From Xanthomonas sp. SI (GTDB lineage: Bacteria; Pseudomonadota; Gammaproteobacteria; Xanthomonadales; Xanthomonadaceae), in the NCBI RefSeq assembly GCF_014236855.1, contig NZ_CP051261.1:1054001-1118000 (forward strand): DNA of 64,000 bases. Direction: 5' to 3'. Under the pieces are notes generated by a model. That model was given only the letters and a program-made list of their open reading frames with translations, was not told the DNA's origin and did not search any database. A program made the position numbers and the translations under genes. This document shows, piece after piece, positions 8,827 through 25,001 of this stretch. Positions within the stretch are counted from its first letter, which is position 1, and each line of letters starts with the position of its first letter.

Positions 8827-9453
8827 CTAGCCCAGACCGTGCCGCGCAAGGGCGCGGCGTAAGGCGCGGGCGCCGCTGGCGGTTTCTGCGGGCATGCCGA
8901 TCGCGCGGGCGCCGCGGACGTTGACGAACAGGTCGTCGATGAACAGCGCTTGCCGCGCGGCGACGCCGAAATGGTCGAGCGCGCGGCGGTAGACCTCGGC
9001 CTGCGGTTTGCGTCCGCCGAGTGCGCCGCTGCACAGCACGCGCCCGCGCAGCAGCGGGAACAGGGTCGGCACGATCTGCGGGATCGCCTGGGCCATCAGT
9101 GCGCCGTTGTTGGTCAGCACGCCGATGTCGATCCTGTCGGCCAGCGCCAGCACGCGTTCGATCACGCCGGGATCGCCGCGACTGCCGGCCACGCGTGCGG
9201 CGATCCAGTCGGCTTCGTCCACATGCGCGCCCAACCCTTCGCCTAACCGGTGCAGATAGGCGACGGTGGCGATGTCGCCGCCGTCGTAGGCGGTTTCCAG
9301 TCCGGAAGCGAACAGGACCTCTCGCACCCGCGCCGGATCGCAGCCGCAGTGGGCGGCCAGGTGTGCGATGCGTGCCGTCCGCGAGTAGGTCGCCAGCACG
9401 CCGTCGAAGTCGAGCAGCAGCAATTTCGGGACAGGATGGATCAACGCGGCCAC
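8827..9453 (-). CDS. HAD-superfamily hydrolase
   Basis: About 208 residues with the haloacid dehalogenase motifs. Motif I is LLLDFDGVLA (nucleophile Asp, acid/base Asp). Motif II is GVLTNNG. Motif III has a lysine in GGRKPQAEVYRRAL. Motif IV is ALFIDDLFVNV. It is a subfamily I phosphatase or epoxide-hydrolase-like member with unknown substrate. No ATG lies near the domain start. A GTG at 9453 gives a short leader before motif I, and a TTG at 9444 is also possible, so the start is uncertain. It is divergent from the receptor gene, and its 5' region borders the direct-repeat promoter at 9583-9647. Confidence 0.78.
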   Translation of the reverse strand: MAALIHPVPKLLLLDFDGVLATYSRTARIAHLAAHCGCDPARVREVLFASGLETAYDGGDIATVAYLHRLGEGLGAHVDEADWIAARVAGSRGDPGVIERVLALADRIDIGVLTNNGALMAQAIPQIVPTLFPLLRGRVLCSGALGGRKPQAEVYRRALDHFGVAARQALFIDDLFVNVRGARAIGMPAETASGARALRRALARHGLG

Positions 9454-9582
9454 CGCGTCTGGCGCTGCGTGCAACGGCGCGGATGGGGCATGGGTCGGGT
9501 CCGGAGTGTCGGTGGCCGAGATTAACCCACTCGCCGCGGCGATGAGCGCCACTACCCGCCCCGTGATGCCTGCCCGCTCGCG

Positions 9583-9647
9583 CCCACCCGCTCGCTGCGC
9601 ACCTACCCGCCGGATCCGGCCGCCCGCCGCTGCGCGCTGGCTATGGT
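9583..9647 (+). promoter_or_regulatory. Direct-repeat activator promoter P1 (receptor 1)
   Basis: CCCACCCGCT at 9583 and CCTACCCGCC at 9602 are direct copies 19 bp apart. The hexamer TATGGT starts at 9642, 40 bp after the second copy. No plausible -35 hexamer is present, as expected for an activator-dependent promoter. A further CTACCCGCC lies at 9552. The same geometry is found at 12525-12589 and 21632-21696. The likely activator is the MalT-like protein encoded at 17229-20003; that link is inference. Confidence 0.7.
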
Positions 9648-9732
9648 CCCTGCACGCCGCGATCGCGGCGCCGCCGGTCGGGGAGCCGGTGCGCATCCAC
9701 GCCACATCCACGTCACCTCGGGGGTCTTGAAC

Positions 9733-12429
9733 ATGAGCAAGCGTTTGAACGCCGATCGTCTGGCGGAATCGGTATGCAGGGGATTGCGCAACGCACGTCA
9801 CGGCCACGGGCTGGCCACGCTGACGCTGCTGCTGGCCGGTGCGCAGGCGCTGCCGGCGCTGGCGGAAGAGCCGGGTGGCGAGGCCAAGACGCTGGACGCG
9901 ATCACCGTCATCTCCACCGGCACGCGCAAGACCAACATGGCGGTGACCGACAGCCCGGCGCCAATCCAGTTGGTGAGCGCGGACATGCTCAAGCAGTCGG
10001 CCGCGCCCGACCTGATCAACGCCATCGCCAACCAGGTGCCGTCGTACAACGCCAACCAGACCGGCAACGACATGGCGAGCCAGACGCTCACCGCCAGCCT
10101 GCGCAACCTGTCGCCCAACCACACGCTGGTGCTGGTCAACGGCAAGCGCCGCCACATCACCTCCAACGTCAACACCACCACCGGCGCGGCCTCGGCCGAT
10201 CTGTCGTTCATCCCGGCCGCGGCGATCGATCACGTCGAAGTGCTGACCGATGGCGCCGCGGCGCTGTACGGTTCGGACGCGATCGCCGGCGTCATCAACA
10301 TCATCCTCAAGAAGAACCACGACGGCGGCGAAGTGGACGCCGGTTACGCAGGCTACAAGGATGGCGGCGGCGGCACCGACTCGTGGGGTGCCAATATCGG
10401 CTTCGGCAGCGACGCGGCGTATTTCAGCCTCAGCGCCGAGGTCGAGAACCGCAAGACCGTGTACCGGCTCGGCTCGTACAGCTACGCCGACTGCGTGGCC
10501 AACTACGCCGACTGCTCGGCGGTGAATCCGGACATGGCCGATTTCCTGGCCGACGACGTCGAGGGCATGACCCTCAACGGGCGCTTCCCCAACGTCAACG
10601 CCTGGCTCAATCCGCCGGAAGTGCACCGCAAGGCGCTGTTCTTCAACTCCGGCGTGGTGCTCAGCGACACCCTGGAGTTCTACGCGTTCGGCAGCTACGG
10701 CAAGAAGACCGCGCAGTCGGAGGAGAACTACCGCCGTCCCAGCCAGGACGGCGGCTACGTCGATCCGGCGAGCGGCGAGGTCAGCCACAAGTATCCGTTG
10801 GGCTTCAATCCGTCCGAGGCCTCCGACGAGGTGGACTACGAGTTGAGCGCCGGGCTGAAGGGCGTGCTGGCCGATTGGTCCTGGGATTTCTCCAGCAGCT
10901 ACGGCAAGAACGAGATGGACGTGTACACGTTGAACTCGATGAACTTCAGCTTGTGGCAGGACTACGGTTATTCGCCGGAGGACTTCTACGACGGCAGTTT
11001 CTGGGCCAGCCAGTGGACCACCAATTTCAACGCCACGCACGATTTCGACATCGGCCTGTCGCAGCCGCTGACCTTCAACGCCGGCGTCGAGTACCGCCGC
11101 GACCAGTACGGCATCGATCCGGGCGATCCGACCTCGTACTACGGCGCCGGCGCGTCCTCGTTCCCCGGCTACAACCCGTTGTTCAACACCGGCTCCTACA
11201 GCCGCCACAGCTACGCCGCGTATGCCGACGTGGTGTTCAATCCGACCGAGAAGTGGCTGGTCGATGTGGCCGGGCGCTACGAGGACTACAGCGACTTCGG
11301 CAGCAAGGTGGTCGGCAAGCTGACCACGCGCTTCGACCTCACCGACACGTTCGCGGTGCGCGGCACCGCCAGCACCGGGTTCCGCGCGCCGACCCTGCAG
11401 GAGGGCTATTACTCGGCGGTGCAGGTCGGCCCGACCAGCGCCACCCCGACCCTGCAGCCCAACAGCGCGGCTGCCGCGGCGCTGGGCTTCGGCAGCCTGA
11501 AGCCGGAGACCAGCACCAACTACAGCCTCGGCTTCGTGTTCCGGCCGATGCAGAATTTCGACAGCACGCTGGATTTCTACCGCATCACCATCTCCGACCG
11601 CATCGGCGTCGGCACCTTTGAGTATTCCAAGGCCGGCCAGCCGGGCGACACCAACGGCGACGGCACGCCCGACGCCGCCTACAACGCCGCGCTGGGCCAG
11701 GCGCTGATTGATTTCGGCTATCTCGGCGGCATCGATCCGGCCGCGCCGGGCGGCTCGCTCGACGCCACCGCGCGGCAGGACATCTCGGTGGCGATCTTCA
11801 ACAATGCGCTGAAGACCCGCAGCACCGGCGTGGACTGGGTGACCAACTACATCACCGAGTTCGACTGGGGCTCGATCGACTGGATGCTGGCGGCCAACTA
11901 CAACAAGACCGAGGTGCTCAGCGCCAAGCCCGCGCCGGAGGTGCTCGGCGGCGCCACCATGTACAGCGCGGCGACGCTGATCAATCTGGAGAACAACGCG
12001 CCCAAGTACCGGGTCAACCTGGGCGCTACGTTCAACATCGGCAAGTTCAGCCTGCGCGTGACCGAGGCGGTCTATGGCCCGCAGTACCAGCTGGTGGCGC
12101 CGTACGACGAGTGGAACGGCGACATCTTCCCCGACAGCGTGCTGAGCCAGCTGGACGTGGTCGACGTCAACGGCGCGCCGTACTACAAGCAGAAGATCGG
12201 CACGATGGCGCTGACCAACGTCGAACTGACGTTCCGGCCCACCGAGCAGCTGACCGTCAGCGTCGGCGGCGACAACGTGTTCAACAAATACCCCGACAAG
12301 GTGCCGGCGGCGGCGTACGACTACCTGGAGAAGAACTATCTCAGCTACTACAACTCGCCGTACCTGACCGGCAGCCCGGTTGGTTACTTCGGCGCGCGCT
12401 ACTACGCCAAGCTGACCTACCGCTTCTGA
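9733..12429 (+). CDS. TonB-dependent outer-membrane receptor 1
   Basis: An 898-residue receptor. It has an extended N-terminal signal region (about residues 1-45, ending near ALPALAEE) and a TonB-box-like segment TLDAITVIS. The plug domain contains LVLVNGKRRH, LSFIPAAAIDHVEVLTDGAAALYGSDAIAGVINIILK and related motifs. A 22-strand barrel follows, ending in the outer-membrane C-terminal signature LTYRF. GFRAPTLQE is the usual barrel motif. Such receptors import siderophores, peptides, sugars or other scarce solutes using TonB energy. The substrate is not evident. The shared promoter geometry with the amine oxidase operon suggests uptake of its substrate or product. A palindromic repeat at 12440 closes the unit. 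Confidence 0.9.
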   Translation: MSKRLNADRLAESVCRGLRNARHGHGLATLTLLLAGAQALPALAEEPGGEAKTLDAITVISTGTRKTNMAVTDSPAPIQLVSADMLKQSAAPDLINAIANQVPSYNANQTGNDMASQTLTASLRNLSPNHTLVLVNGKRRHITSNVNTTTGAASADLSFIPAAAIDHVEVLTDGAAALYGSDAIAGVINIILKKNHDGGEVDAGYAGYKDGGGGTDSWGANIGFGSDAAYFSLSAEVENRKTVYRLGSYSYADCVANYADCSAVNPDMADFLADDVEGMTLNGRFPNVNAWLNPPEVHRKALFFNSGVVLSDTLEFYAFGSYGKKTAQSEENYRRPSQDGGYVDPASGEVSHKYPLGFNPSEASDEVDYELSAGLKGVLADWSWDFSSSYGKNEMDVYTLNSMNFSLWQDYGYSPEDFYDGSFWASQWTTNFNATHDFDIGLSQPLTFNAGVEYRRDQYGIDPGDPTSYYGAGASSFPGYNPLFNTGSYSRHSYAAYADVVFNPTEKWLVDVAGRYEDYSDFGSKVVGKLTTRFDLTDTFAVRGTASTGFRAPTLQEGYYSAVQVGPTSATPTLQPNSAAAAALGFGSLKPETSTNYSLGFVFRPMQNFDSTLDFYRITISDRIGVGTFEYSKAGQPGDTNGDGTPDAAYNAALGQALIDFGYLGGIDPAAPGGSLDATARQDISVAIFNNALKTRSTGVDWVTNYITEFDWGSIDWMLAANYNKTEVLSAKPAPEVLGGATMYSAATLINLENNAPKYRVNLGATFNIGKFSLRVTEAVYGPQYQLVAPYDEWNGDIFPDSVLSQLDVVDVNGAPYYKQKIGTMALTNVELTFRPTEQLTVSVGGDNVFNKYPDKVPAAAYDYLEKNYLSYYNSPYLTGSPVGYFGARYYAKLTYRF

Positions 12430-12439
12430 GCGGTTCGAG

Positions 12440-12478
12440 CCCCTCTCCCGCCGGGAGAGGGGTTGGGGTGAGGGTACG
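12440..12478. repeat. GC-rich palindromic repeat (CCCCTCTCCC...GGGAGAGGGG)
   Basis: An inverted repeat with arms CCCCTCTCCC/GGGAGAGGGG followed by TTGGGGTGAGGGTACG, 10 bp after receptor 1. It is the half-unit of the larger element duplicated at 25020-25290. The hairpin could act as a terminator or a transcript 3'-end stabiliser; it has no T tract. Confidence 0.7.
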
Positions 12479-12524
12479 TCCGCCAGCGGAGTGCTCGCCC
12501 GCGTAATGCCGCGCCGTCCGCGTC

Positions 12525-12589
12525 CCTACCCGCTCCATCGCGACCTACCCGCCGCACGCGGCCTGCGCCGCCGCCGCGGCGGCTATGGT
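12525..12589 (+). promoter_or_regulatory. Direct-repeat activator promoter P2 (amine oxidase operon)
   Basis: CCTACCCGCT at 12525 and CCTACCCGCC at 12544 are 19 bp apart. TATGGT starts at 12584, 40 bp after the second copy. A transcript from here would have a leader of only about 15 nt before the amine oxidase start. Spacing is identical to P1 and P3. Confidence 0.72.
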
Positions 12590-12610
12590 CGATCTGCAAT
12601 CCGTGAGGCG

Positions 12611-14218
12611 ATGTCGACGATGCAAGCAACAACCAAGGGCGCCATGACCCGCCGCCAATTGCTCGCCAGGATCGGTCTGGCCGGCGGCGGTGCGATGATG
12701 TATCAGGCGATGCACAGCTTGGGCATGGCCGCCGAATCTCGTTTCAACGGCGTGCCGCGGCTGGACGGCGACGCCAAGGGCGCCTCGGTGCTGGTGCTCG
12801 GCGCCGGCCTGGCCGGGCTGACCGCGGCCTACGAGCTGCGCAAGGCCGGCTATCGCGTGCAGGTGCTCGAGTACAACGCGCGTCCCGGTGGCCGCAACTG
12901 GACGCTGCGCGGCGGCGATCGCTACACCGAGCTGGGCGGCTTCGAGCAGCAATGCAGGTTCGACGAGGGCATGTACCTCAATCCCGGCCCGTGGCGCATC
13001 CCGCATCATCACAAGGCGGTGCTGTCCTACTGCAAGCAGTTCGGGGTGGCGCTGGAACCGTTCGTGCAGGTCAACTTCAACGCCTTGCTGCACAGCCGCG
13101 CCGGGTTCGGCGGCAAGCCGCAGCGCTTCCGCGACATCGACGCCGACTACAAGGGGCACGTGGCCGAACTGCTGGCCAAGAGCACTAAGCAGGGCGCGCT
13201 GGACGCGCAGGTGCAGCGCGAGGACCAGGAGATCCTGCTCGAGTCGCTGCGCAACTGGGGCGCGCTGGACAAGGACTTCGGCTACGTCAAAGGCCGCGAG
13301 AGCAGCGAGCGCCGCGGCTTCGCCAAGTATCCCGGCGGCGGCCTGTCCGGCAAGCCGCAATTCTCCGAACCGTTCAGCACCCAGGACATCCTGCGCTCGC
13401 GGCTGTGGGCCACGCTGGCGGCCGGCAACAACTACGAGATGCAGACCGCGATGTTCCAGCCGGTCGGCGGCATGGACCAGATCGGCAAGGCCTTCGCGCG
13501 CGAGCTCGGCGACGCGATCCGCTACAACGCGCGGGTCACCCGCATCGACCAGGACGCGCACGGGGTCAGCGTCGCCTACCAGGACGGCGACGGCGCCGAG
13601 CAACTGGCGAAAGCCGACTGGTGCGTGTGCACGATCCCGCTGTCGATCCTCAGCCGCATTCCGCTCGCGGTGGGCGAAAAGATGGCCGCGGCGATCGGCC
13701 AGGTGCCGTATGCGGCGTCGGTGAAGGTGGGGTTGCAGTTCAAGCGCCGTTTCTGGGAAGAGGATGAGGCGATCTACGGCGGCATCAGCTACACCGACCT
13801 GCCGATCACCTTGATCAGCTATCCGAGCACCGGTTTCCAGAGCGCCGGCAAGGGCGTGCTGCTCGGTGCCTACGTGTGGGGACTGGAGGCGTTCGAGTTC
13901 ACCTCGATGACGCCGCAGCAGCGCGTGACCAAGGCGGTGGAGTACGGCACGCACTTGCATCCGCAGTATCCGCGCGAATTCGACAACGGCATCGCCGTGG
14001 GCTGGCACCGGGTGCCGTTCACCCATGGCTGCTTCGGCGTGTGGAGCGACGCCGCGCGCGCCGAGCATTACGAAAACCTGTGCCAGATCGATGGCCGCGT
14101 CGCGCTCGCCGGCGAACACGCCTCGTACATTCCGGCCTGGCAGGAAGGGGCCATCACCTCGGCGCTGGATGCGATCGAGCGCCTGCATCGCCGCGTCGTC
14201 AATGGAGCCCGCGCATGA
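12611..14218 (+). CDS. Tat-exported flavin amine/amino-acid oxidase
   Basis: A 535-residue FAD enzyme of the flavin monoamine oxidase / L-amino-acid oxidase family. The N-terminus has a twin-arginine signal (TRRQLLARIG, hydrophobic stretch to about residue 40), so it should be folded with FAD and exported. The FAD Rossmann motif is VLVLGAGLAGLTAAYELRKAG, followed by the GG motif ARPGGRNWTLR. The C-terminal FAD motif GEHASYIPAWQEGAITSAL matches amino-acid oxidases. It should oxidise an amine or amino acid to an imine. With a cytochrome c gene overlapping its stop codon (ATGA), electrons probably go to the cytochrome rather than to oxygen; that is inference. ATG codons at 12611, 12620 and 12644 are possible starts. 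The first has GAGG just upstream. Confidence 0.85.
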   Translation: MSTMQATTKGAMTRRQLLARIGLAGGGAMMYQAMHSLGMAAESRFNGVPRLDGDAKGASVLVLGAGLAGLTAAYELRKAGYRVQVLEYNARPGGRNWTLRGGDRYTELGGFEQQCRFDEGMYLNPGPWRIPHHHKAVLSYCKQFGVALEPFVQVNFNALLHSRAGFGGKPQRFRDIDADYKGHVAELLAKSTKQGALDAQVQREDQEILLESLRNWGALDKDFGYVKGRESSERRGFAKYPGGGLSGKPQFSEPFSTQDILRSRLWATLAAGNNYEMQTAMFQPVGGMDQIGKAFARELGDAIRYNARVTRIDQDAHGVSVAYQDGDGAEQLAKADWCVCTIPLSILSRIPLAVGEKMAAAIGQVPYAASVKVGLQFKRRFWEEDEAIYGGISYTDLPITLISYPSTGFQSAGKGVLLGAYVWGLEAFEFTSMTPQQRVTKAVEYGTHLHPQYPREFDNGIAVGWHRVPFTHGCFGVWSDAARAEHYENLCQIDGRVALAGEHASYIPAWQEGAITSALDAIERLHRRVVNGARA

Positions 14219-14643
14219 AGCTCGATCGTCATTGGGTGCTCGCCGCGGCGGTCGCCGCCGCAGTGCTGGCGCTGATGCTGCCGCCGGCGATCGGCCCGGC
14301 CGCGGCGCAGAGTTCCGATGCCACGCCGCTGTATCCGCAGGCCGCGTTCGCCACCGCCTCCGGCGCCACCGTGTACGCGGCGATCTGCCAGAGCTGCCAC
14401 ATGCCCGGCGGGCAGGGCGCGCGCGGCGGCGGCGAGTATCCGGCGCTGGCCGGCAACCCCAAGGTGGCGGCGGCGCCGTACGTGGCGATGATGGTGCTCG
14501 ACGGCCGCGGCGGCATGCCCGGTTTCGCCGGCATGCTCAACGATCAGCAGGTCGCCGAGGTCGTGCACTACGTGCGCAGCCAGTTCGGCAACGACTATCC
14601 CGGCAAGCTCAGCGCCGACGAGGTGCGCACGCTGCGGCACTGA
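14215..14643 (+). CDS. Periplasmic c-type cytochrome
   Basis: A 142-residue class I cytochrome c. The Sec signal spans about residues 1-31, ending in AAAQSS. The haem site is CQSCH (Cys58, Cys61, His62), and the probable distal ligand is Met101 in GRGGMPGF. Its ATG overlaps the amine oxidase stop, so the two are translationally coupled. It is the likely direct electron acceptor of the exported flavoenzyme, passing electrons to azurin or a terminal oxidase. The closest general type is the small cytochrome c subunit found beside periplasmic dehydrogenases. Confidence 0.88.
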   Translation: MKLDRHWVLAAAVAAAVLALMLPPAIGPAAAQSSDATPLYPQAAFATASGATVYAAICQSCHMPGGQGARGGGEYPALAGNPKVAAAPYVAMMVLDGRGGMPGFAGMLNDQQVAEVVHYVRSQFGNDYPGKLSADEVRTLRH

Positions 14644-14686
14644 GCCGGTACCGTTTCATTCTCTTTTCGACCGCGAGGAGTTCCGC

Positions 14687-15196
14687 ATGCGCCGTTCGTT
14701 CGTTTCCCGCCCGCTCCGTGCCGGCCTGTGCGCCGCGCTGTGGTTGCCCGCCCTGGCCGGCGCCGCCGAGATCGTGCGCCACAAGATTCCCAACAGCGAT
14801 TTTCCGATTTCCGCGGCGGTGGAGATCCCGGCCGGCAAGACCACGGTCTATCTCAGCGGCGCGGTGCCGCGGCCGATCGATGCCAGCGCGCCGAAAGATT
14901 CGCCCGCCGCCTACGGCGACACCAAGGCGCAGACCGTCAGCGTGCTGTCGCAGATCGAGGCGCAGCTGCAAGGCATGGGCCTGGGCATGCGCGACGTGGT
15001 CAAGATGCAGGCGTTCCTGGTCGGCGATCCGGCGCTGGGCGGGAAGATGGATTTCGCCGGTTTCATGGAGGGCTACCGGCAGTTCTTCGGCACGCCCGCG
15101 CAGCCCAACCTGCCGTCGCGCTCGGCGTTCCAGATCGCCGCGCTGGGCAATCCGCTGTACCGCATCGAGATCGAAGTGGTCGCGGTGCGTCCGTAG
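14687..15196 (+). CDS. Secreted RidA-family imine/enamine deaminase
   Basis: A 169-residue protein with a Sec signal (about residues 1-27, cleavage near LAGAAE) in front of a full YjgF/RidA domain. The catalytic-site arginine typical of active RidA enzymes is present (Arg145 in NLPSRSAF). RidA proteins hydrolyse reactive 2-imino or enamine products to keto acids and ammonia. A secreted version beside an exported amine oxidase would do this job in the periplasm, which is inference from context. The ATG at 14687 follows GAGGAG. The cytosolic paralogue is at 48349-48732. Confidence 0.85.
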   Translation: MRRSFVSRPLRAGLCAALWLPALAGAAEIVRHKIPNSDFPISAAVEIPAGKTTVYLSGAVPRPIDASAPKDSPAAYGDTKAQTVSVLSQIEAQLQGMGLGMRDVVKMQAFLVGDPALGGKMDFAGFMEGYRQFFGTPAQPNLPSRSAFQIAALGNPLYRIEIEVVAVRP

Positions 15197-15227
15197 GTTC
15201 TTCGCCCTGTTTTCCAAGGAGTCCGTC

Positions 15228-16418
15228 ATGCAGCAGCCGTCGCGCTCGCGCCGCACGTTCCTCAAGGACTCGGCGCTGGTCGCCGCGGCCGGTTTCGGCG
15301 CGCCGTGGCTGGCGCAGGCCGTGCCCACCGCGGCGCAGGCGGCCAATGCCGAACTGGCGCCGGTGCTGATCAACGCCAACGAATATCCCGGCGGCCCGTC
15401 GCCGGCCGCGCAGCGCGCGATCGCGGCGATCGCGTCCAGCGGCGGCCGCTACCTGGGCGAGCTGCAACTGGAATTGCTGCAGACCCTTGCCGACCAGCTC
15501 GGCGTGGGCATCGATCACCTGATGGCCTACGCCGGTTCCACCGAGCCGCTGGACTACACCATGCTGGCGTTCACTTCGCCCAGCGCGTCGCTGGTCACCG
15601 CCGATCCCACCTTCGAATCCGGCTGGCGCGCCGCTGCGCGCAACGGCGCCAAGGTGATCAAGGTGCCGCTGCGCAAGGACGACGCGCACGACGTGCAGGC
15701 GATGTGCGCCGCCGACGCCAACGCCGGGGTGCTCTACATCTGCAACCCGAACAATCCCACCGGTTCGGTGACCGCACGCAAGGACCTGGACTACGCGCTG
15801 GCGCACAAGCCCAAGGGCAGCGTGCTGGTGGTCGACGAGGCGTATCTGCATTTTTCCGACAGCGCCAGCAGCATGGTCGATCGCGTCGCCGCCGGCGACG
15901 ATGTGATCGTGCTGCGCACCTTCTCCAAGCTCTACGGCATGGCTGGCATTCGCCTGGGCTATGCGGTGGCGCGGCCGGAGCTGTTGGCCAAGCTCAAGTT
16001 CTACAGTGTCAACAGCCTGCCGGTAACCGCGGTCGCCGCCGGCTTGGCCAGCCTGCGCGATCCGGCGCTGGTGCCGCAGCGACGCGCGCTCAACAGCGCC
16101 ATCCGCAACGATGTAGTGCGCTGGCTCGGCGCGCAGGGCCATGCGTGCACGGCGTCGGAAAGCAATTGCTTCATGGTCGACGTAAAGCGCCCGGCGCAGG
16201 AGTTCATGGACGCGATGGCCACTTATGGCGTATTCGTCGGCCGCAGCTGGGCGTTGTGGCCGAACCGTTCGCGCATCACCATTGGTACCGCGGCGGAGAT
16301 GGCGCGGTTCAAGCGCGCGTTCGCGCAGGTGGCGGCCGGCCAGCGCGGGCCGCTGCCGGTACCTGCACCGAGGATGGCGCTGCACGATCCTTTGCACGGA
16401 TTCTTCCGCAACGCCTAG
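15228..16418 (+). CDS. Tat-exported class I/II PLP aminotransferase (HisC-like)
   Basis: A 396-residue aminotransferase fold preceded by a twin-arginine signal (SRRTFLKDSA, then a hydrophobic run and AQA-type cleavage near residue 39). Motifs are ICNPNNPTGS (Asn175 region), VVDEAYLHF (Asp203, Tyr206) and the PLP lysine Lys234 in TFSKLYGMAGIRLGY, so the active site looks complete. The overall type resembles histidinol-phosphate aminotransferase. Exported PLP enzymes are uncommon; PvdN of the pyoverdine pathway is a known precedent. It has a strong AAGGAG ribosome-binding site (15216-15221), and a similar CCAAGGAGTCCGTC leader precedes the azurin gene. Confidence 0.85.
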   Translation: MQQPSRSRRTFLKDSALVAAAGFGAPWLAQAVPTAAQAANAELAPVLINANEYPGGPSPAAQRAIAAIASSGGRYLGELQLELLQTLADQLGVGIDHLMAYAGSTEPLDYTMLAFTSPSASLVTADPTFESGWRAAARNGAKVIKVPLRKDDAHDVQAMCAADANAGVLYICNPNNPTGSVTARKDLDYALAHKPKGSVLVVDEAYLHFSDSASSMVDRVAAGDDVIVLRTFSKLYGMAGIRLGYAVARPELLAKLKFYSVNSLPVTAVAAGLASLRDPALVPQRRALNSAIRNDVVRWLGAQGHACTASESNCFMVDVKRPAQEFMDAMATYGVFVGRSWALWPNRSRITIGTAAEMARFKRAFAQVAAGQRGPLPVPAPRMALHDPLHGFFRNA

Positions 16419-16459
16419 CGCTGCCCGCGCCGGATGCTGCAGTGCACGAGGGCTTGTCG

Positions 16460-16488
16460 TTGACAAACATTTGCGCAAAGGCAGACAG
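16460..16488 (+). promoter_or_regulatory. Possible promoter before azurin
   Basis: TTGACA at 16460 is a perfect -35 hexamer, but the sequence 17 bp later (AGACAG) is a poor -10. The palindrome TTTGCGCAAA at 16470-16479 lies within the spacer and could be an operator. Azurin may therefore have its own start site besides read-through from the operon. Confidence 0.3.
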
Positions 16489-16569
16489 TCGTGGCGACGC
16501 CGCTGTGCGCGTAGCGCATGCTGGCGAGGTTCGCGTTGCTGTGCCATCCCCATTGCCAAGGAGTCCGTC

Positions 16570-17025
16570 TTGAAAGCGAAGTCGCTGTCCCCCTTACTGG
16601 TCCTCGCCGCGCTCGCGTTCGCGCCGGCGGCCTGGGCCAAGACCTGTGCGGTGACCATCACCGGCACCGACCAGATGTCCTTCGACCAGCCGCAGATCAA
16701 GGTCGCCGCCGACTGCACCGAAGTGGCGCTGACGCTCAAGCACAGCGGCAAGCTCACGGCCGCGGTGATGGGCCACAACTGGGTGCTGGCCAAGACACCG
16801 GACTTCCAGGCGGTGGCCAATGCCGGCACCAGTTCCAGCCTGGCCGACAACTACCTGCCGAAGAACGACGCGCGGATCATCGCGCACACCAAGGTGATCG
16901 GCGCCGGGCAGTCGGACACGGTCAAGTTCTCCACCGCCAAGCTCACCAAGGGCGGCGACTACACGTTCTTCTGCTCGTTCCCGGGGCACTGGGCGATGAT
17001 GAAGGGCAAGTTCGTGTTCGGTTGA
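16570..17025 (+). CDS. Azurin (periplasmic blue copper protein)
   Basis: A 151-residue precursor with a Sec signal (about residues 1-23, AAWAKT). Ligand spacing fits azurin exactly: His69, Cys135, His140 and Met144 correspond to His46, Cys112, His117 and Met121, and Cys26/Cys49 to the conserved disulfide. It carries single electrons between periplasmic redox proteins. The start is TTG at 16570, supported by AAGGAGTCCGTC directly before it and by the signal-peptide length. No in-frame ATG fits. Being last in the series oxidase, cytochrome, RidA, aminotransferase, azurin, it may accept electrons from the cytochrome. Confidence 0.9.
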   Translation: MKAKSLSPLLVLAALAFAPAAWAKTCAVTITGTDQMSFDQPQIKVAADCTEVALTLKHSGKLTAAVMGHNWVLAKTPDFQAVANAGTSSSLADNYLPKNDARIIAHTKVIGAGQSDTVKFSTAKLTKGGDYTFFCSFPGHWAMMKGKFVFG

Positions 17026-17123
17026 GCGGCCGCGGTTGCGCTGCAGGTTGCGATCAGCGATCTGCAGCGCCTTTCGAACATGATGGCGCCGCAGGCTTCG
17101 GCCTGCGTCAGCGCCGACTCACC

Positions 17124-17193
17124 TGTAGGAGCGGCTTCAGCCGCGACCGGGCTTTCCCGGTAAAACCCGGCCGCGGCTGAAGCCGCTCCTACA
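17124..17193. repeat. Inverted REP pair between convergent genes
   Basis: Two REP copies in opposite orientation (17124-17145 and 17172-17193) form a near-perfect long hairpin between azurin and the convergent regulator gene. It probably ends or protects both transcripts. The rest of 17026-17228 holds nothing else I can support. Confidence 0.75.
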
Positions 17194-17228
17194 GGACCGC
17201 GACGACGCTCGCGATTGCGGGATCGCAC

Positions 17229-20003
17229 TCAGTCCAGTGCGGCATCCGGCGGCGCCATGCGCTGCAGCAGCCCGCGCTGCAGCGCGCTGGCCAGCGCCGC
17301 TTCGCGGGTGCCGGCTTCCAGTTTGCGGTACAGGTTCTTCAGGTGGAACTTGACCGTGTTTTCCGACAGCGCCAGGCGTCGCGCGATCTGCTTGTTCGCG
17401 TCGCCCTGCGCCAGCAGCGCCAGCACTTCCAGTTCGCGTTCGCTGAACAGGTCGGCGCCGCTGTCCTGGTCGTGGCGCAGCTTGTCCAGCAGCGCCTGGA
17501 TGGTCATCGCCAGCGTGGTGTTCGGCGCGGCCTGCGGATCCTGCTGGCGCGCCATGCGCAGCAGCGCCTTGCCCGGCACGCCCAGTTCCAGCAGGCATTG
17601 CCAGGCCTGGGTGCTGGCCACGTGCTGCAGCGCGTGGCGCAGATAGGGCAGGGCGGCGGCGGATTCGCCGCGGTCGTGCAGCACCAGCGCGATGCGCGCG
17701 CGCACTCGCGCCAGTTGCACCTGGTTGTCGGCGGCCACGCAGGCCGCCTCCACGCCTTGCAGTACCGCCAGCGCGGCGCGGGTGCGTCCGCCCAGGCGGT
17801 GCCAGCGGGCCAGGGCGAAGCCGAGCGCGGCGAGAAAGCGCCAATCCTGCGGCTGGCCCAGCGCGTGCGCGAACCGCGCTTCGCCGCCGGTGCGCGCGAC
17901 CAGTACGTCGATCGCCGGCGACGGTGGCTGGTCGAGCAGCACGTGCAGCCGCCAGGCCAGCGCCAGGTCGGCGAGCCGGCCCAGGTGCCGCGCGTGCGCG
18001 ATGCGGTCGATGTGGTCGAGCAGTTCCAGCGCAGCGCGGCCGCTGCGGTCGTGTTGTCGCGCCAGCACCAGCGCGGTCTCGTAGCCGGCGGCATAGATGT
18101 CCAGCCAGCCGTCGTGCTGCTCCAGGAAACCCAGCGCCGGCTGCAGGCAGTCGGCGGCCTCGTCGTAGCGGCCGTGCTCGCATTGCAGCTGTGCCAGCAG
18201 GCATTGGCTGACCGCCTGCAGGGTGGGATCGAGCTGCTGCTGGCGCTGGGCGATGGCTAGCGCCTGGCGGCAGGTGGCCTCGGCCCGCTCCAATTGGCCG
18301 CGGTAGTAGTGGCTCTGCGCCAGATGGATCAGCGCATAGCTGGCGCCGACCTCGCTGCCGCTGGCCTGCATCGCGCTGCCGGCCAGCTGCGCATAGCGCT
18401 CGGCGCCGGCGAAATCGGCGCGGCCCAGCGCGGTGGTGGCGCAGATACACCACAGCGTGCCGCGGCCCAGGCTGTCGTCCTCGTCCAGCGCCGCCGCCTG
18501 CGCGGCGATCTGCGCCAGTCCGCGCGGGTTGGCGCAGACCTGGTCGAGCAGGTCGCGCAGCAACGCCACCACCACCGTGTAGTCGCGCTCGAACGGCGCG
18601 CGCACCTGCTCGGGAAAATCGCGGAAGCGTTCCAGCAGGGTCTGCGCGTGCGCGAATTCGCCCAGCTTCATGTGCAGGTAGGCCTGGGTCAGGTTCAGCG
18701 CCGGCCGCTCGCCGATGCTGCTGCGCGGGAAGCGGCGCAGCAGCGCGCGGATCGGCGCGGTGCCGTGGCGCAGCAGCAACTGCCAGGTGCCGGCGCGGGC
18801 GATGCAGTCGGCGGCGCTGTCGATCGCGCCGCCGCGCACCGCATGCCGCACCGCTTCGGGCAACTGCCCGTGCGCGTCGAACCAGTGCGCGGCGCGCCGG
18901 TGCAGCTGCGGCGCCAGTCCGGGCGTGTCGCGTTCCAGCTGCTGGTACAGATAATCGGCGAACAGCGGATGGAAGCGGAACCATTCGTGCTCGCCGTCCA
19001 GCGCCACCAGCAGGCCCTGGAAGTGCGCCAGCCGCTCCAGCAGGCGGCCGCTGTCGTCGCGCTCGCGCACCGCATCGGCGAGCGCGGCGTTGAACCGTTC
19101 CAGCGGCGAGAGCTGCAGCAGCAATGCGCGCAAGGCTGGATCCAGGTCGTTGAGCACCTGTTCGGCCAGATACGCCGCCAGCTCGGCGGTGCGTCCGGAG
19201 AACCGGCCGAGGTCGTCGCGGCGGCGTTCGTCGCCGCCCAGCCACAGTCCGGCCAGTTGCAGCGCGACCGCCCAGCCCTCGGTCTGCCGGCGCAGTTGGC
19301 GGGCCATCGCCGCCGGCACCTGCGGTCCCAGCAGCGCCAGCGTCTCGGCGTCGTCTAGCGCCAGTTCGCGGGCGCCGATGCGTTCCAGCTGGCCTTGCAG
19401 CGCCCAGCGCGCCAATGGCAGCGCCGGCGCGCGCCGGGTCGCCAGCAGCAGGTGCAATTGGCCGCCGGCGTGTTCGACCAGCCGCGTCACCACCTCGTCG
19501 AGCGCGCTGGCGTGGCCGCGGTCGTAGTCGTCGAGGATCACCAGCAGGCGCCGCGGCGCGGCACGGATCGCGCGGATCAGCACCGGCAGGGTGCATGCCA
19601 CCTCCAGGTCCTGGCCCTGCTGCTGCAGCGCGGCCTGCAAGGACGCGCCGAGGTCGATCCCGGCACCGCGCGCGGCCAGCGCCAGGTAGGCGAGGAAACG
19701 CCCTGGATCGGCATCGTCCTCGTCCAGCGACAGCCACGCCACCGCGGCCTCGCCGCGCTCGCGCAGGCGCTGGTGCCATTGCCCGAGCAAGGTGGTCTTG
19801 CCGAAGCCGGGCGGCGCCAGCAACATGGTCAGCGGCAGCTCGGCGGCGCGGTCCAGGTGCTGCAGCAAGGCCTCGCGCGGCACCGCGGCCACGCGCGAGC
19901 GCGGCGGCGCCAGTTTGTCGGCCAGCACCCAGTCGGGCATGGCGGGACTGTCGTGCGCGGCCGCAGGAAAACGCGGATTCAACAGCGTGACAGGCTTGAG
20001 CAT
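17229..20003 (-). CDS. MalT-like large LuxR-family transcriptional activator (LAL/STAND ATPase)
   Basis: A 924-residue regulator. The N-terminal nucleotide-binding domain has Walker A APPGFGKT (residues 63-70) and Walker B LLVILDD (153-159). A middle of winged-helix and TPR-like helical repeats follows (about 330-840). The C-terminal LuxR helix-turn-helix (about 855-915) contains SERELEVLALLAQGDANKQIARRL and SENTVKFHLKNLYRKL. MalT-type proteins bind an inducer and ATP, oligomerise, and bind direct repeats upstream of target promoters. The direct repeats at 9583, 12525 and 21632 fit that mode, so these are its likely targets. A second possible start is Met22 (19940), whose MPDWVLADKLAPPR fits the family N-terminus well. 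Confidence 0.88.
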   Translation of the reverse strand: MLKPVTLLNPRFPAAAHDSPAMPDWVLADKLAPPRSRVAAVPREALLQHLDRAAELPLTMLLAPPGFGKTTLLGQWHQRLRERGEAAVAWLSLDEDDADPGRFLAYLALAARGAGIDLGASLQAALQQQGQDLEVACTLPVLIRAIRAAPRRLLVILDDYDRGHASALDEVVTRLVEHAGGQLHLLLATRRAPALPLARWALQGQLERIGARELALDDAETLALLGPQVPAAMARQLRRQTEGWAVALQLAGLWLGGDERRRDDLGRFSGRTAELAAYLAEQVLNDLDPALRALLLQLSPLERFNAALADAVRERDDSGRLLERLAHFQGLLVALDGEHEWFRFHPLFADYLYQQLERDTPGLAPQLHRRAAHWFDAHGQLPEAVRHAVRGGAIDSAADCIARAGTWQLLLRHGTAPIRALLRRFPRSSIGERPALNLTQAYLHMKLGEFAHAQTLLERFRDFPEQVRAPFERDYTVVVALLRDLLDQVCANPRGLAQIAAQAAALDEDDSLGRGTLWCICATTALGRADFAGAERYAQLAGSAMQASGSEVGASYALIHLAQSHYYRGQLERAEATCRQALAIAQRQQQLDPTLQAVSQCLLAQLQCEHGRYDEAADCLQPALGFLEQHDGWLDIYAAGYETALVLARQHDRSGRAALELLDHIDRIAHARHLGRLADLALAWRLHVLLDQPPSPAIDVLVARTGGEARFAHALGQPQDWRFLAALGFALARWHRLGGRTRAALAVLQGVEAACVAADNQVQLARVRARIALVLHDRGESAAALPYLRHALQHVASTQAWQCLLELGVPGKALLRMARQQDPQAAPNTTLAMTIQALLDKLRHDQDSGADLFSERELEVLALLAQGDANKQIARRLALSENTVKFHLKNLYRKLEAGTREAALASALQRGLLQRMAPPDAALD

Positions 20004-20224: not shown

Positions 20225-21517
<1,293 letters not shown>

Positions 21518-21631
21518 GGGGTGGGAATCCTTGGCGAGCTGGCCGGGCCGATGGGCCGGGCGCGGAGCGATGCCGCCTATTGTCGCGGCTGCCGCCTGCA
21601 CGTGCCATGTCGCCCGCCGTCTGGACGCCTA

Positions 21632-21696
21632 CCTACCCGCCCGCCACGCACCTACCCGCCACGGCCGGCTCCGTCGTGTGATCCGCTGCCTAGTAT
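21632..21696 (+). promoter_or_regulatory. Direct-repeat activator promoter P3 (receptor 2)
   Basis: CCTACCCGCC at 21632 and again at 21651 are 19 bp apart. TAGTAT starts at 21691, 40 bp after the second copy, as in P1 and P2. The leader to the receptor start would be about 150 nt. Both copies are perfect here, so this may be the strongest of the three sites. Confidence 0.72.
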
Positions 21697-21852: not shown

Positions 21853-24800
21853 ATGCACCGTACGATCCGCAAGAGCGCCTTGGCGCTCGCGTTGGCGCTT
21901 GCCGCCGGCAATGGCTATGCGCAGTCCACCACCGGCAGCATCGTCGGCAGCGTGCCGCCCGGCGCCGGCGAAAGCAGCGTGCTGATCACCAACACCAGCG
22001 GCTTCAGCCGCGAGGTCAAGGTGGACGAACGCGGCCGCTACGCGCAGGGCAATCTGCCGCTGGGCACCTACACGGTCACGCTCAAGCGCGACGGCCAGGT
22101 GGTGGAGACGCGCGAGAACATCAGCCTGGTGGTCGGCGCCGGCACCGAAGTCGGCTTCGGCGGCCCAGCGCAGACGCTGGATGCGGTGAACGTGGTGGCC
22201 GGCAACGTGGCCAGGATCGACGTGGCCAGCGTCGACAGCCGCACCGTGATCACCGCCGAGCAACTGGCGGTGCTGCCGCTGGGCCGCAGCGCCGAGGCCA
22301 TCGCCTTGCTGGCGCCGGGCGTGGTCGCCAACAGCGGCGGCTACGACAACGGCCCGCTCGGCGGTTCGCTGGCCAGCTTCGGCGGCTCGGCGGCGAGCGA
22401 GAACGCGTATTACCTCAACGGCTTCAACACCACCGATCCGGCCAGCAGCCTGGGCGGGCTGACCCTGCCGTACGGCGCGATCGACCAGCAGGAAATCTTC
22501 ACCGGCGGCTACGGCGCGCAATACGGCCGTTCCAACGGCGGCGTGATCAGCCAGGTCGGCAAGCGCGGCAGCAACGACTGGCACTTCGGCGCGGCGGTGA
22601 TCTGGCAGCCGGACAGCCTCAGCGCCCGGCAGAGCGACCTGTATTTCCGCAAGGACAGCGTGTACTGGGATCCGAACAACGCCAAGTACACCGCCGGCAA
22701 CTACATGCCGCTGAGCGAGACCAAGGCCGATCAGACCACCTACAGCGCCTACCTCGGCGGCCCGCTGGTGCAGGACCGGTTGTTCTTCTTCCTGGCGCTG
22801 GAGCAGGTCGATTCCAGCGGCACCCGCGTCGCCGATGCGCGCGTCACCTCCGGCGGCATCTCCGGTTCGCCGTGGACCCGCTACGACTACAAGCAGACCC
22901 GCGCCTACGCCAAGATCGACTGGCAGATCAGCGACAACCACCTGCTCGAATTCACCGGCGCGCAGGACAAGGCGCGCACCAACGGCAACATCTACGGCTA
23001 CGACTACGTCAACCGCGAGGTCGGCAGCTACAAGGGCCGCGAAGGCAAGAACGAGTTCGGCCCGACCCTGTTTCTGGGCAAGTACACCGGCTATTTCGGC
23101 GACAACCTCACCTTGACCGCGCTGTACGGCAAGGAGAGCCTGCCCAACAAGCTCACCGCGATCGGCTACGACGCCGGCAACGGTCCGTTCCTCAACAGCG
23201 TCGCCAACCAGAATCCGGCCTATACCGGCGGCACCGCGATCGGCAATGCGCAGACGGTGGTCTCGATCACCGATCCGGACCGCGAGTACAAGAAGGACAA
23301 CCTGCGCCTGAATCTCAATTGGCGCCTCGGCGCGCACAGCATCGATTTCGGCATCGACAACCAGAAGAGCGAGGCGATCAACATCGGCTCGTACAAGTCC
23401 GGCCCCGGCTATGCCTGGACCTACGGCTACACCCCGGACCCGTACGGCCTCAACAGCGGCGGCCAGGTCAGCGGCTCGGTGGCCGAGGACGGCAGCATCG
23501 GCGTGCCCAGCCCGGGCCTGGCCGATCCCACCTACGGCAGCGGCGGCTACTACGTCACCCAGGACATCGACACCAACCTGTATTCCTACGACGCCAAGCA
23601 GACCGCGTACTACGTCGAAGACCATTGGCAGGCCACCGACAGATTGATGCTCTCGCTCGGCGTGCGCAACGACAGCTTCACCAACTACACCCCGTTCGGC
23701 CAGGCCTACATCGAGCTGAAGAACCAGTGGGCGCCGCGGCTGGGCTTCAGCTGGGACGTCCACGGCGATTCCAGCCTGAAGGTGTACGGCAACATCGGCC
23801 GCTACTACCTCGGCCTGCCGCTGTCGCCGGCGGGCCTGTTCACCCCAGCGGTGTCCACCAGCACCTACTACACCTACAGCGGCATCAACGCCGACGGCAC
23901 GCCGATCCTGGCCACCCAGCTGGCGCCGCCGGTGTCGGCCAATTCGCGCTTCGGCCGGCTCGCCGACGTGCGCACCGCGGTGGTCGAGGACATCAAGGGC
24001 GAGAACCAGGACGAGGTCATTCTCGGCTTCACCACGGTGTTGCCGAACGACTGGGTGTTCGGCGTGCGCGGCACCCACCGCCGGCTCAACGACGGCATCG
24101 ACGACACCAACCTGGACAACTCCAACGCGGGCCTGGTGGCCGCGGCGGCCGCGGCGGGCGTGGACATCGACTGGACCAAGAACGCCAGCGCGGCGCTGGT
24201 CAATCCGGGCAAGACCAATACCTACCGGGTGGTCGGGACCGACGGCCAGGTGCACGCGTTGACCGTGACCCGCGAGCAGGGCGGCTACCCCGAATTCAAG
24301 CGCCGTTATTCGGCGCTGGAATTCAACCTGGAGCGTCCGTTCGACGGCCGCTGGTACACCAAGATGAGCTACGTGTGGTCGCACAGTTACGGCACCACCG
24401 AAGGCCAGCTGCGTTCGGACCTGTGGCGCACCGGCGGCGCGCTGGGCAGCTGGCGACCTCGACCACGCAGAGCTGGGACCACGCGGCGCTGATGGAGAAC
24501 TTCAACGGCAACCAGTCCAACGACCGCCGCCATCAGCTGAAGGCGTACGGCTTCTACCAGCTGACCGAGGAGTGGGGCACGTCCGCAAACCTGAGCCTGA
24601 TTTCCGGCGCGCCACGGCCGTGCCTGGGCTATTACTACGGCAGCAACTACGACGCCGGCGACCGCGACCCGGCCGGCTACGCCAATCCCAGTATCACCGG
24701 CGGCCCGTACCACTTCTGCTACAACCCGGCCACCGGCACCGGCGAAGCGTCGCCGCCGGGATCGCACGGCAACCTGAGCTGGGTGGCGCAGCTCGACCTG

Positions 24801-25001
24801 GGCCTGACCTACAAGCCGAAGTTCGCCGAAGGCAAACTGGCGCTGAGCCTGGACGTGTTCAACGTCACCAACCGGCAGACGGTGACCAACGTCTATCCGT
24901 TCTCCGAATTGAATCCGGGCGAAGTCAATCCGCTATGGAACCAGGCGGTGGCGTACCAGGCGCCGCGCTCGGCCCGGGTGACGCTGAGCTACGACTTCTG
25001 A
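21853..25001 (+). pseudogene. TonB-dependent receptor 2 (Oar-like), interrupted by a frameshift
   Basis: The gene starts with a signal peptide (MHRTIRKSALALALALAAG, cleavage near GYAQ). A carboxypeptidase-regulatory-like Ig-type domain follows (about residues 25-100, STTGSIVGSV to GTYTVTLKRDGQ), then a plug and a barrel of the Oar-like class. The reading frame is intact to about 24453 (SDLWRTGGALG). It then goes out of frame and stops at 24492. The missing C-terminus continues in another frame as GQLATSTTQSWDH to the barrel end VTLSYDF at 25001. Loss of one base near 24444-24456, for example in a GGCCAG site that now reads GGCAG, would explain this. Repaired length is about 1049 residues. It may be a recent inactivation or a sequencing error. 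Confidence 0.82.

What the first reader, a model, noticed from the sequence alone, without database searches (positions are those of the whole stretch)
12611..17025. Exported amine-oxidation cluster: Tat flavin oxidase, cytochrome c, secreted RidA, Tat aminotransferase, azurin
Five consecutive genes on one strand each carry an export signal: Tat for the FAD and PLP enzymes, Sec for cytochrome, RidA and azurin. The set makes chemical sense as one periplasmic pathway. The flavin enzyme makes an imine, RidA hydrolyses it, the aminotransferase acts on a related amino or keto compound, and electrons go to cytochrome c and azurin. I know no named system with this composition; clustering of RidA with flavin oxidases is known in general. 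The substrate is unknown, and a tailoring role as in pyoverdine maturation is as possible as catabolism.
Basis: partly seen in the sequence, partly recalled or inferred. Interest (0 to 1): 0.78.

Follow-up and report, generated by a model that had tools for sequence, protein, structure and literature searches.

The report
Exported amino-acid oxidation module in Xanthomonas
A Xanthomonas gene group appears to pull electrons out of amino acids outside the inner membrane and feed them to a cytochrome; its core was already described in a plant-friendly bacterium, but here it carries an extra exported transaminase, two uptake receptors, a regulator and a shared DNA element, while the neighbouring azurin gene looks like a bystander.

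Summary
The five genes and their export signals are real. The first three (Tat flavoenzyme, cytochrome c, exported Rid) match the published lao-cccA-ridA cluster of Gluconacetobacter diazotrophicus, where lao insertions stop auxin formation from tryptophan (PMC5053998). The flavoenzyme is an L-amino-acid oxidase relative, not a monoamine oxidase. In 80 of 80 named loci it keeps the twin arginine, the carboxylate-binding Arg/Tyr and a cytochrome c next door; with the NicA2 precedent (PMC12224317) this predicts an L-amino-acid:cytochrome c dehydrogenase.

Azurin is probably not part of it. Four congeners lacking the module keep azurin and hemL in place but lack three interleaved blocks: TonB receptor 1 + oxidase operon, a MalT-like regulator, TonB receptor 2. 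One relative with the whole oxidase operon has a truncated azurin. In the window, receptor 1, the oxidase operon and receptor 2 share a promoter element (CYACCCGC-N11-CTACCCGC, then a -10-like box). So the unit spans about 9.5-25.0 kb.

The Tat transaminase, seen beside the module only in Xanthomonadaceae, is related to PtaA but below its cut-off. Best guess: periplasmic deamination of L-amino acids, with transamination coupled to the keto acids. Substrate, electron acceptor and transaminase role are inferred. Novelty: variant of a known kind.

The parts
9584..9610 (+). Direct repeat CCACCCGC-N11-CTACCCGC upstream of receptor 1 (proposed operator)
9639..9647 (+). GGCTATGGT, proposed -10 box, 28 nt after the repeat
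9733..12429 (+). TonB-dependent receptor 1
   Evidence: Plug + barrel; in 12 of the 13 module-bearing genomes of the genus and none of the 7 others at E<=1e-150, with at most 46 first-look candidates scored per genome
12526..12552 (+). Direct repeat CTACCCGC-N11-CTACCCGC upstream of the oxidase operon (proposed operator)
12581..12589 (+). GGCTATGGT, proposed -10 box, 28 nt after the repeat
12611..14218 (+). Tat-exported FAD L-amino acid oxidoreductase (LAAO family)
   Evidence: Best solved relative 2jae, Rhodococcus opacus LAAO, 321 bits; RR, R129, K372, Y421 in 80 of 80
14215..14643 (+). Exported monohaem cytochrome c (CQSCH, candidate axial M101)
   Evidence: C, C, H and M101 kept in 80 of 80
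14687..15196 (+). Exported Rid-family imine deaminase, Rid3-like
   Evidence: Best solved relatives PSPTO3006 and PFL1385, both Rid3 in PMC5619798; R145 in 52 of 52
15228..16418 (+). Tat-exported PLP aminotransferase, PRK09105 subfamily, distant from PtaA
   Evidence: RR in 15 of 16 and candidate PLP lysine K234 in 15 of 16 loci, the exceptions (L042, L034) being damaged genes; present in the same 13 of 20 genomes as the oxidase
16570..17025 (+). Azurin: neighbour, judged NOT part of the module
   Evidence: TIGR02695 over cut-off; kept where the module is missing
17229..20003 (-). MalT-like LuxR-family regulator (NTPase-like + TPR + GerE), proposed regulator
   Evidence: present at E<=1e-60 in exactly the 13 of 20 genomes that have the oxidase
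20225..21601 (-). Glutamate-1-semialdehyde aminomutase (hemL): neighbour, not part of the module
   Evidence: kept at 90-91% DNA identity in the four module-less loci; name recalled, not run against a family library
21633..21659 (+). Direct repeat CTACCCGC-N11-CTACCCGC upstream of receptor 2 (proposed operator); GCCTAGTATC at the -10 position
21853..24492 (+). TonB-dependent receptor 2 (Plug, OMP_b-brl_4; CarboxypepD_reg below cut-off), reading frame broken near its 3' end

Best explanation
The unit is a regulated periplasmic L-amino acid deamination module. Two TonB receptors bring in the substrate or its carrier (inferred). The Tat-exported LAAO-family flavoenzyme takes two electrons from an L-alpha-amino acid and passes them to the cytochrome c encoded next door, hence to the respiratory chain, rather than mainly to O2 (inferred from gene pairing and the NicA2/CycN precedent). 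The exported Rid3 protein hydrolyses the imino acid to the 2-oxo acid and ammonia (inferred from family activity). In Xanthomonadaceae a Tat-exported transaminase was added; it most likely uses the 2-oxo acids as amino acceptors, so that the pair deaminates amino acids that the flavoenzyme does not take itself (inferred, weakest step). The MalT-like regulator probably controls receptor 1, the operon and receptor 2 through the shared 19-bp-period direct repeat (inferred). Azurin and hemL are bystanders. Shown here: gene content, conservation, joint absence of the three blocks and the shared promoter element.
For: LAAO relationship: 321 bits to 2jae against about 50 bits to monoamine oxidase B. 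R129 and Y421, aligned with the residues that bind the carboxylate in LAAOs (role recalled), in 80 of 80. Cytochrome c adjacent in 80 of 80 named loci and, in two random draws of whole genomes, in 20 of 33 loci examined (19 window-like downstream, 1 haem ORF directly upstream, placed by hand), which with 13 named rows lie on one side of one branch, 33 rows, SH-aLRT 98. Tat signal plus adjacent cytochrome c predicts dehydrogenases in PMC12224317. lao insertion in G. diazotrophicus leaves tryptophan unused and stops IAA; that paper cites ccm mutants with 5% of the IAA. Its lao primers encode peptides whose best or joint best matches in the window oxidase lie at the same residue numbers, 404-410 and 447-453. 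An M20-type peptidase family follows the module in 9 Bradyrhizobium-like and 7 Mesorhizobium/Aminobacter loci of the 80, peptide-transporter-type genes in 8 (Pfam run on one member of each), fitting an amino acid or peptide diet. Oxidase, aminotransferase and regulator are present in the same 13 of 20 genomes, receptor 1 in 12 of these and no other; receptor 2 is missing from the locus in the four module-less genomes examined.
Against: No activity was measured. K372, taken as the lysine linked with O2 reactivity (equivalence to NicA2 Lys340 recalled, not aligned here), is retained, but PMC12224317 says that lysine is retained in nearly all dehydrogenases too. The 80 named loci are the best 80 of 555 confirmed relatives, so close kin are over-represented. 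In the random draws 10 of 33 oxidase loci have no cytochrome c ORF within reach, 7 of these with Rid alone. In PMC12224317 most tested TAT-bearing enzymes without CytC react well with O2. The transaminase occurs in only 16 of 80 loci and is damaged in 2 of them. Regulator-to-operator binding is untested; in the 14 named Xanthomonas other than X. bonasiae the repeat pattern was found upstream of the oxidase in none. Receptor 2 was not sought genome-wide.
Confidence: 0.65

Rival explanations
1. Auxin module: the natural substrate is L-tryptophan and the product indole-3-pyruvate, a precursor of IAA, as in G. diazotrophicus.
For: Same three genes; lao mutants lose IAA and leave tryptophan. Chlamydomonas periplasmic LAO1 with a Rid-like partner also makes IAA from tryptophan. 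Several carriers (Xanthomonas, Bradyrhizobium, Mesorhizobium) are plant-associated genera (recalled).
Against: The window genome has no match over the cut-off for indolepyruvate decarboxylase TIGR03394, only three weaker ones (91-120 bits, cut-off 554.5); none of 14 control genomes is over it either, so the test is weak. It is a special case of the best explanation rather than a contradiction.
Confidence: 0.25
2. Tailoring module for an exported or imported natural product (as PvdN/PtaA act on pyoverdine): receptors import it, the enzymes modify an amino acid residue of it.
For: Two TonB receptors; the aminotransferase's nearest named equivalog is PtaA (406 bits); PtaA occurs in species without pyoverdine.
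Against: PtaA cut-off (500) not met. The core is kept in lineages without the receptors or the aminotransferase. Biosynthetic or pyoverdine genes were not searched for.
Confidence: 0.12
3. A true O2-using, H2O2-producing periplasmic L-amino acid oxidase; the cytochrome c serves peroxide or other chemistry.
For: Characterised LAAOs are mostly oxidases (recalled); the candidate O2-related lysine is retained.
Against: Cytochrome c next door in all 80 named loci and on one side of a branch in the random draws; Tat plus CytC was a good predictor of dehydrogenase function in PMC12224317.
Confidence: 0.15
4. The first reader's five-protein chain with azurin as electron acceptor.
For: Azurin lies downstream of the aminotransferase in all 15 named Xanthomonas loci and in two same-family genomes of other genera, G035 and G020, so the neighbourhood is old.
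Against: Azurin kept without the module in 4 genomes, truncated in one module-bearing genome, not beside the module in Pseudoxanthomonas GM95, with its own conserved upstream region. Odds set at 0.08 rather than 0.06 after rechecking G020.
Confidence: 0.08

Closest known systems
lao-cccA-ridA cluster of Gluconacetobacter diazotrophicus PAL5 (PMC5053998; abstract, passages and Results part 1 seen)
   Same: Tat LAAO of 533 aa, cytochrome c and RidA genes in one cluster; residue positions encoded by its lao primers fall on the same numbers in the window oxidase; the paper names Xanthomonas among genomes with the arrangement.
   Different: No transaminase, receptors, regulator or operator in the parts seen; substrate tested was tryptophan; electron acceptor not shown.
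NicA2/CycN and other cytochrome c-using amine dehydrogenases (PMC12224317; passages and section 13 seen)
   Same: FAD amine oxidoreductase superfamily, Tat signal, adjacent Sec-exported cytochrome c.
   Different: Found by searching with NicA2; the window enzyme is in the LAAO branch, and no entry called nicotine oxidoreductase is among the 60 best of 109 PDB hits. 'L-amino acid' and 'amino acid oxidase' do not occur in its main text; genus names seem to be missing from the held text, so their absence says nothing.
Rhodococcus opacus L-amino acid oxidase (2jae)
   Same: Closest solved relative over almost the whole length; carboxylate-binding Arg and Tyr align.
   Different: Its gene surroundings were not examined; known as an O2-using oxidase (recalled).
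PtaA / PvdN periplasmic PLP enzymes of pyoverdine maturation (PMC6206403; passages seen)
   Same: Tat-exported folded PLP enzyme acting in the periplasm; PtaA is the nearest named equivalog.
   Different: PtaA cut-off not met; the substrate here is unknown.
Chlamydomonas LAO1/LAO2(RidA) (PMC10805672; passages seen)
   Same: Extracytoplasmic L-amino acid oxidase with a Rid partner, deaminates L-Trp to IPyA.
   Different: Eukaryotic, produces H2O2; no cytochrome c in its described gene cluster.

Membership tests
lao-cccA-ridA cluster | Tat-signalled LAAO, cytochrome c and Rid clustered on one strand | tested here: met
lao-cccA-ridA cluster | Homology of the oxidase to GDI2456 | tested here: met
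   Only by primer-encoded peptides: YPSHGYF and QVIHPNY fall at 404-410 and 447-453 in both, 4 of 7 and 3 of 7 identities; the first is the best placement, the second shares the top score with one other place. cccA/ridA peptides match partly and not at the same numbers. The full sequence was not retrieved.
lao-cccA-ridA cluster | Needed for conversion of L-Trp to IPyA/IAA | not testable with these tools
   Shown for G. diazotrophicus only
Cytochrome c-using FAO dehydrogenase | Tat signal plus adjacent cytochrome c gene | tested here: met
   80 of 80 named loci
Cytochrome c-using FAO dehydrogenase | Slow with O2, fast with the cognate cytochrome c | not testable with these tools
   -
Cytochrome c-using FAO dehydrogenase | Falls in the NicA2/Pnao clades 1-3 of PMC12224317 | not tested
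   No NicA2 sequence was retrieved
L-amino acid oxidase family | Amino_oxidase domain with carboxylate-binding Arg and Tyr | tested here: met
   R129 and Y421 in 80 of 80. Roles recalled.
Rid3 imine deaminase | Closest to Rid3 proteins and catalytic Arg kept | tested here: met
   nearest among solved structures only
PtaA equivalog (NF051461) | Score over 500 bits | tested here: not met
   406.5 bits
PRK09105 aminotransferase subfamily | Score over 444 bits | tested here: met
   546.4 bits
Azurin | TIGR02695 over 105.1 bits | tested here: met
   183.5 bits
MalT (NF003420 equivalog) | Score over 537 bits | tested here: not met
   293.5 bits: MalT-like only

The most novel reading that the evidence does not exclude
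The Xanthomonadaceae form is a periplasmic transdeamination cycle. The 2-oxo acids made by flavoenzyme plus Rid recharge the pyridoxamine form of the Tat-exported transaminase, whose amino donor can then be almost any amino acid, and the electrons leave through the dedicated cytochrome c. This would answer how periplasmic transaminases regain PLP, which PMC6206403 leaves as 'somehow regenerated'. It would also make the whole LAAO-cytochrome c-Rid3 clade respiratory amino acid dehydrogenases mis-named as oxidases.
Probability: 0.25. Interest if true: 0.7.

Novelty: new variant of a known kind. Interest (0 to 1): 0.5.

Why it matters
If right, a large family annotated as monoamine or amino acid oxidases across Alpha- and Gammaproteobacteria would be cytochrome c dehydrogenases that draw respiratory electrons from amino acids in the periplasm without making peroxide. 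The Xanthomonas form adds a defined gene set (two receptors, enzymes, regulator, shared promoter element) with sharply bounded natural absences, so that function and inducer can be tested. It also offers an amino acceptor source for periplasmic transaminases, an open point in the pyoverdine review cited.

Tried and rejected
Azurin as a component: rejected (see rivals). Monoamine oxidase: rejected on scores. PtaA membership: rejected on cut-off. Origin of the transaminase from the ligA-locus paralogue: the quick tree puts the paralogue elsewhere, but the deep forks have support of only 84-94, so left open. Indolepyruvate decarboxylase in the own genome: nothing over cut-off, and no control genome over it either, so uninformative. 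Sigma-70 scan of 9400-17400: no site, expected 0.8; the shared element was found by comparing the two upstream regions instead. Structure prediction was not run: the sequence relation to 2jae was judged enough. That something is not in print rests on the held library only: searches listed no title or abstract start on the transaminase, receptors, regulator or operator of this cluster; six papers were opened in part, the others seen as listing only.
Full report
WHAT IS THERE. Window 12611-17025 holds five + strand genes as described: FAD oxidase, cytochrome c, Rid, PLP aminotransferase, azurin. Oxidase and cytochrome c overlap by ATGA; the aminotransferase follows Rid by 31 nt; 151 nt separate it from azurin, which starts with TTG. 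The oxidase and the aminotransferase carry twin-arginine motifs, the others Sec-like starts. The genome has tatC. Upstream lies a TonB receptor (9733-12429), downstream on the other strand a MalT-like LuxR-family regulator (17229-20003) and hemL, then a second TonB receptor from about 21853.

WHAT THE ENZYMES ARE. The oxidase's best solved relative is Rhodococcus opacus L-amino acid oxidase (2jae, 321 bits); other LAAOs, some of them reconstructed ancestors, follow (159 bits and less), monoamine oxidases only at about 50 bits. Arg129 and Tyr421 align with the Arg and Tyr that hold the substrate carboxylate in LAAOs (roles recalled); both, and Lys372, are kept in 80 of 80 named relatives. So the substrate is most likely an L-alpha-amino acid with a free carboxylate. 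The Rid protein is closest to PSPTO3006 and PFL1385 among solved structures, classed as Rid3 and active on several imino acids in PMC5619798 (passages); Arg145 is kept in 52 of 52. PMC4433059 (passages) had already reported that RidA, or sometimes Rid3, genes cluster with FAD amine oxidase genes. The cytochrome has one CXXCH and a conserved Met101 (80 of 80). The aminotransferase is in PRK09105 (546 bits, cut-off 444); its nearest named equivalog, PtaA, is below cut-off (406, cut-off 500).

HOW WIDELY THE SET IS CONSERVED. One scan of genome contigs gave 80 named loci, the best of 555 confirmed relatives, so close kin are over-represented. Cytochrome c follows the oxidase in 80 of 80; Rid follows in 52 of 80 and lies somewhere in the locus in 56; a receptor with some similarity to receptor 1 precedes it in 25; the aminotransferase is present in 16 (15 Xanthomonas, Pseudoxanthomonas GM95; damaged in L034 and L042); azurin in 15, all Xanthomonas; the regulator in 15 (short contigs make these lower bounds). 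Beyond these 80, two same-family genomes of other genera, G035 and G020, carry all five genes plus regulator and hemL in the same order. One contig of G020 has the length (109,545) of a Stenotrophomonas sp. MMGLT7 contig, so G020 is probably that strain.

RANDOM DRAWS. To lessen the bias I used two draws of whole genomes: 6 of 369 Gammaproteobacteria and 27 of 398 genomes of the phylum have an oxidase at E<=1e-60, own genome included in both; the draws overlap, and at most 3 candidates per genome were scored. Of the 33 loci examined (window included; one further place gave no locus), 19 have a window-like cytochrome c downstream, 1 (L152) a haem ORF directly upstream, 3 another kind of haem ORF downstream, and 10 none in reach; Rid lies downstream on the same strand in 23 of 33, with only about 1.5 kb visible. 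On a quick tree of these plus 13 of the 80 named rows (46 rows), the 33 rows with cytochrome c pairing of the first two kinds lie on one side of one branch, SH-aLRT 98, 1 change against a shuffled mean of 11.4; L152 was assigned by hand and the root is unknown. An M20-type peptidase family follows the module in 7 Mesorhizobium/Aminobacter loci, with peptide-type transporter genes in 8, and another M20 family, with a signal-like start in the example viewed, in 9 Bradyrhizobium-like loci (Pfam on one member each).

THE CORE IS ALREADY KNOWN. PMC5053998 (abstract, passages, Results part 1) describes lao-cccA-ridA in G. diazotrophicus PAL5: a Tat LAAO, a cytochrome c and RidA. Two Tn5 insertions in lao abolished IAA and left tryptophan in the medium. 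In the mutant tested, cccA and ridA transcripts fell too, and the parts seen report no complementation, so the effect cannot be pinned on lao alone. The authors suggest electron transfer by cytochrome c and imine hydrolysis by RidA, and state that the arrangement occurs in Caulobacter and Xanthomonas. The two lao primers encode YPSHGYF at codons 404-410 and QVIHPNY at 447-453; the window oxidase has YPSTGFQ and THLHPQY at exactly these residues, each a best or joint best placement. PMC12224317 (passages, section 13) shows for NicA2 relatives that Tat signal plus adjacent cytochrome c marks cytochrome c dehydrogenases, and suggests the sign may work in other families. This LAAO clade looks like such a case.

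AZURIN LOOKS LIKE A BYSTANDER; THE REAL UNIT IS LARGER. In the window's genus (20 genomes, own included) the oxidase is in 13, the cluster-type aminotransferase and the regulator in the same 13, receptor 1 in 12 of these, azurin in 17. The seven genomes without the oxidase are four with azurin (G003, G005, G012, G019) and three without it (G002, G016, G017). In the four, DNA alignment to the window shows flanks, azurin (about 16419/16433-17025/17044) and hemL (about 20225-21615) in place at about 80-91% identity, and three gaps: about 9.4/9.5-16.4 kb (receptor 1, oxidase, cytochrome c, Rid, aminotransferase), about 17.0-20.2 kb (regulator) and about 21.6-25.0 kb (receptor 2). Receptor 2 has no match in these four loci (it was not sought elsewhere in those genomes). 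The upstream region of azurin is conserved with and without the module, from just after the aminotransferase stop. One module-bearing genome (G010, L117) has an azurin lacking its second half, and in Pseudoxanthomonas GM95 the regulator follows the aminotransferase with no azurin match between. On the other side, azurin does sit behind the module in every named Xanthomonas locus and in G035 and G020, so the neighbourhood is old. Whether the four genomes reflect one event or several, loss or never-gained, was not tested.

A SHARED PROMOTER ELEMENT. Comparing the upstream DNA of receptor 1 and of the oxidase showed a common block: CYACCCGC-N11-CTACCCGC, then 28 nt, then GGCTATGGTC. In the window the repeat occurs three times, upstream of receptor 1, the oxidase operon and receptor 2 (0.30 expected with up to 2 mismatches). 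The repeat with GGCTATGGT 15-35 nt on occurs twice in the 5.25-Mb genome, both here; the reversed control pattern not at all. In 290 kb of Xanthomonas and Pseudoxanthomonas loci two half-sites CYACCC[GA] occur 17 times at a period of 19 bp and 0-2 times at each other period from 10 to 30. In 1.01 Mb of other loci they occur once at 19, no more than at 12, 22 or 30, though that one lies 108 bp upstream of the oxidase match in Stenotrophomonas L056. In the window's genus the element is upstream of the oxidase in 12 of 13 module-bearing genomes, not in G009, which has it upstream of its receptors. A -10-like box follows at the same distance in most. The four module-less loci have none. Against this: of the 14 named Xanthomonas other than X. 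bonasiae (L031), none has the pattern upstream of the oxidase, 2 have it upstream of receptor 1, 10 just beyond hemL (where receptor 2 begins in those stretches that reach it), and 4 nowhere in the stretch held. That the MalT-like regulator binds it is inference from co-occurrence.

MECHANISM. Inferred order: receptors 1 and 2 admit the substrate or its carrier; the flavoenzyme oxidises an L-amino acid; cytochrome c takes the electrons; Rid3 hydrolyses the imine. The transaminase could exchange amino groups with the 2-oxo acids formed, widening the substrate range and regaining its own PLP form. PMC6206403 (passages) says that for PtaA this regeneration is assumed but unexplained. Which amino acid is natural is unknown; tryptophan is the only one with genetic support in a bacterium that I saw, in another genus.

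VERDICT. Observation confirmed; interpretation partly supported. A variant of a published cluster, with an added exported transaminase, two receptors, a regulator and a shared element that I did not find in print within the held library. Interest 0.5.

Noticed in passing
window 21853-25001: TonB receptor 2 is split by a frameshift near 24.4-24.5 kb; in relative L122 both pieces lie in one frame. Mutation or sequencing error cannot be told apart.
   Followed up: partly
window 17124-17193: Near-perfect palindrome between azurin and the regulator (106 nt fold at -72.9 kcal/mol as RNA, z -8.95); its 21-nt arm has 8 matches (up to 3 mismatches) in the window against 0.01 expected, so a dispersed repeat.
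   Followed up: partly
L115:7555-8685 (G000:C1 about 3.15 Mb): A second Tat aminotransferase, 52% identical, in the window genome beside DNA-ligase- and SMC-like genes (names recalled); matches of this level (52-56%) are in 18 of 20 genomes of the genus, not in G010 and G001 at E<=1e-50.
   Followed up: partly
L117 (G010): Azurin lacks its second half although the oxidase operon and regulator are whole.
   Followed up: yes
L034, L042: In X. bromi and X. populi the aminotransferase is shortened or in pieces, and in L034 the regulator is in pieces too: decay of the module in some lineages.
   Followed up: no
L090, L102, L133/L152: Doubled modules: tandem oxidase-cytochrome pairs in Pseudoxanthomonas composti, two oxidases in a Nevskia MAG, and two oxidase genes about 1.4 kb apart on opposite strands in genome G563.
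   Followed up: no
L125, L126, L143, L148, L150, L151, L154: Related Tat oxidases (35-41% identical) with Rid but no cytochrome c in reach: candidates for O2 use or another acceptor.
   Followed up: partly
L111-L113, near 11.7-13.1 kb: Where receptor 2 is missing, a stretch matching window 25016-25288 recurs at about 140-bp steps.
   Followed up: no
L057, L053: A MAG labelled Eremiobacteraeota shows the same conserved gene order as Dyella loci, and one labelled Ferrovum has an oxidase 68% identical to the window's: possible binning errors.
   Followed up: no
L018 (G032): Oxidase N-terminal part with a stop, with part of Rid directly after or overlapping it: a possible remnant of the module in a fragmented genome.
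   Followed up: no
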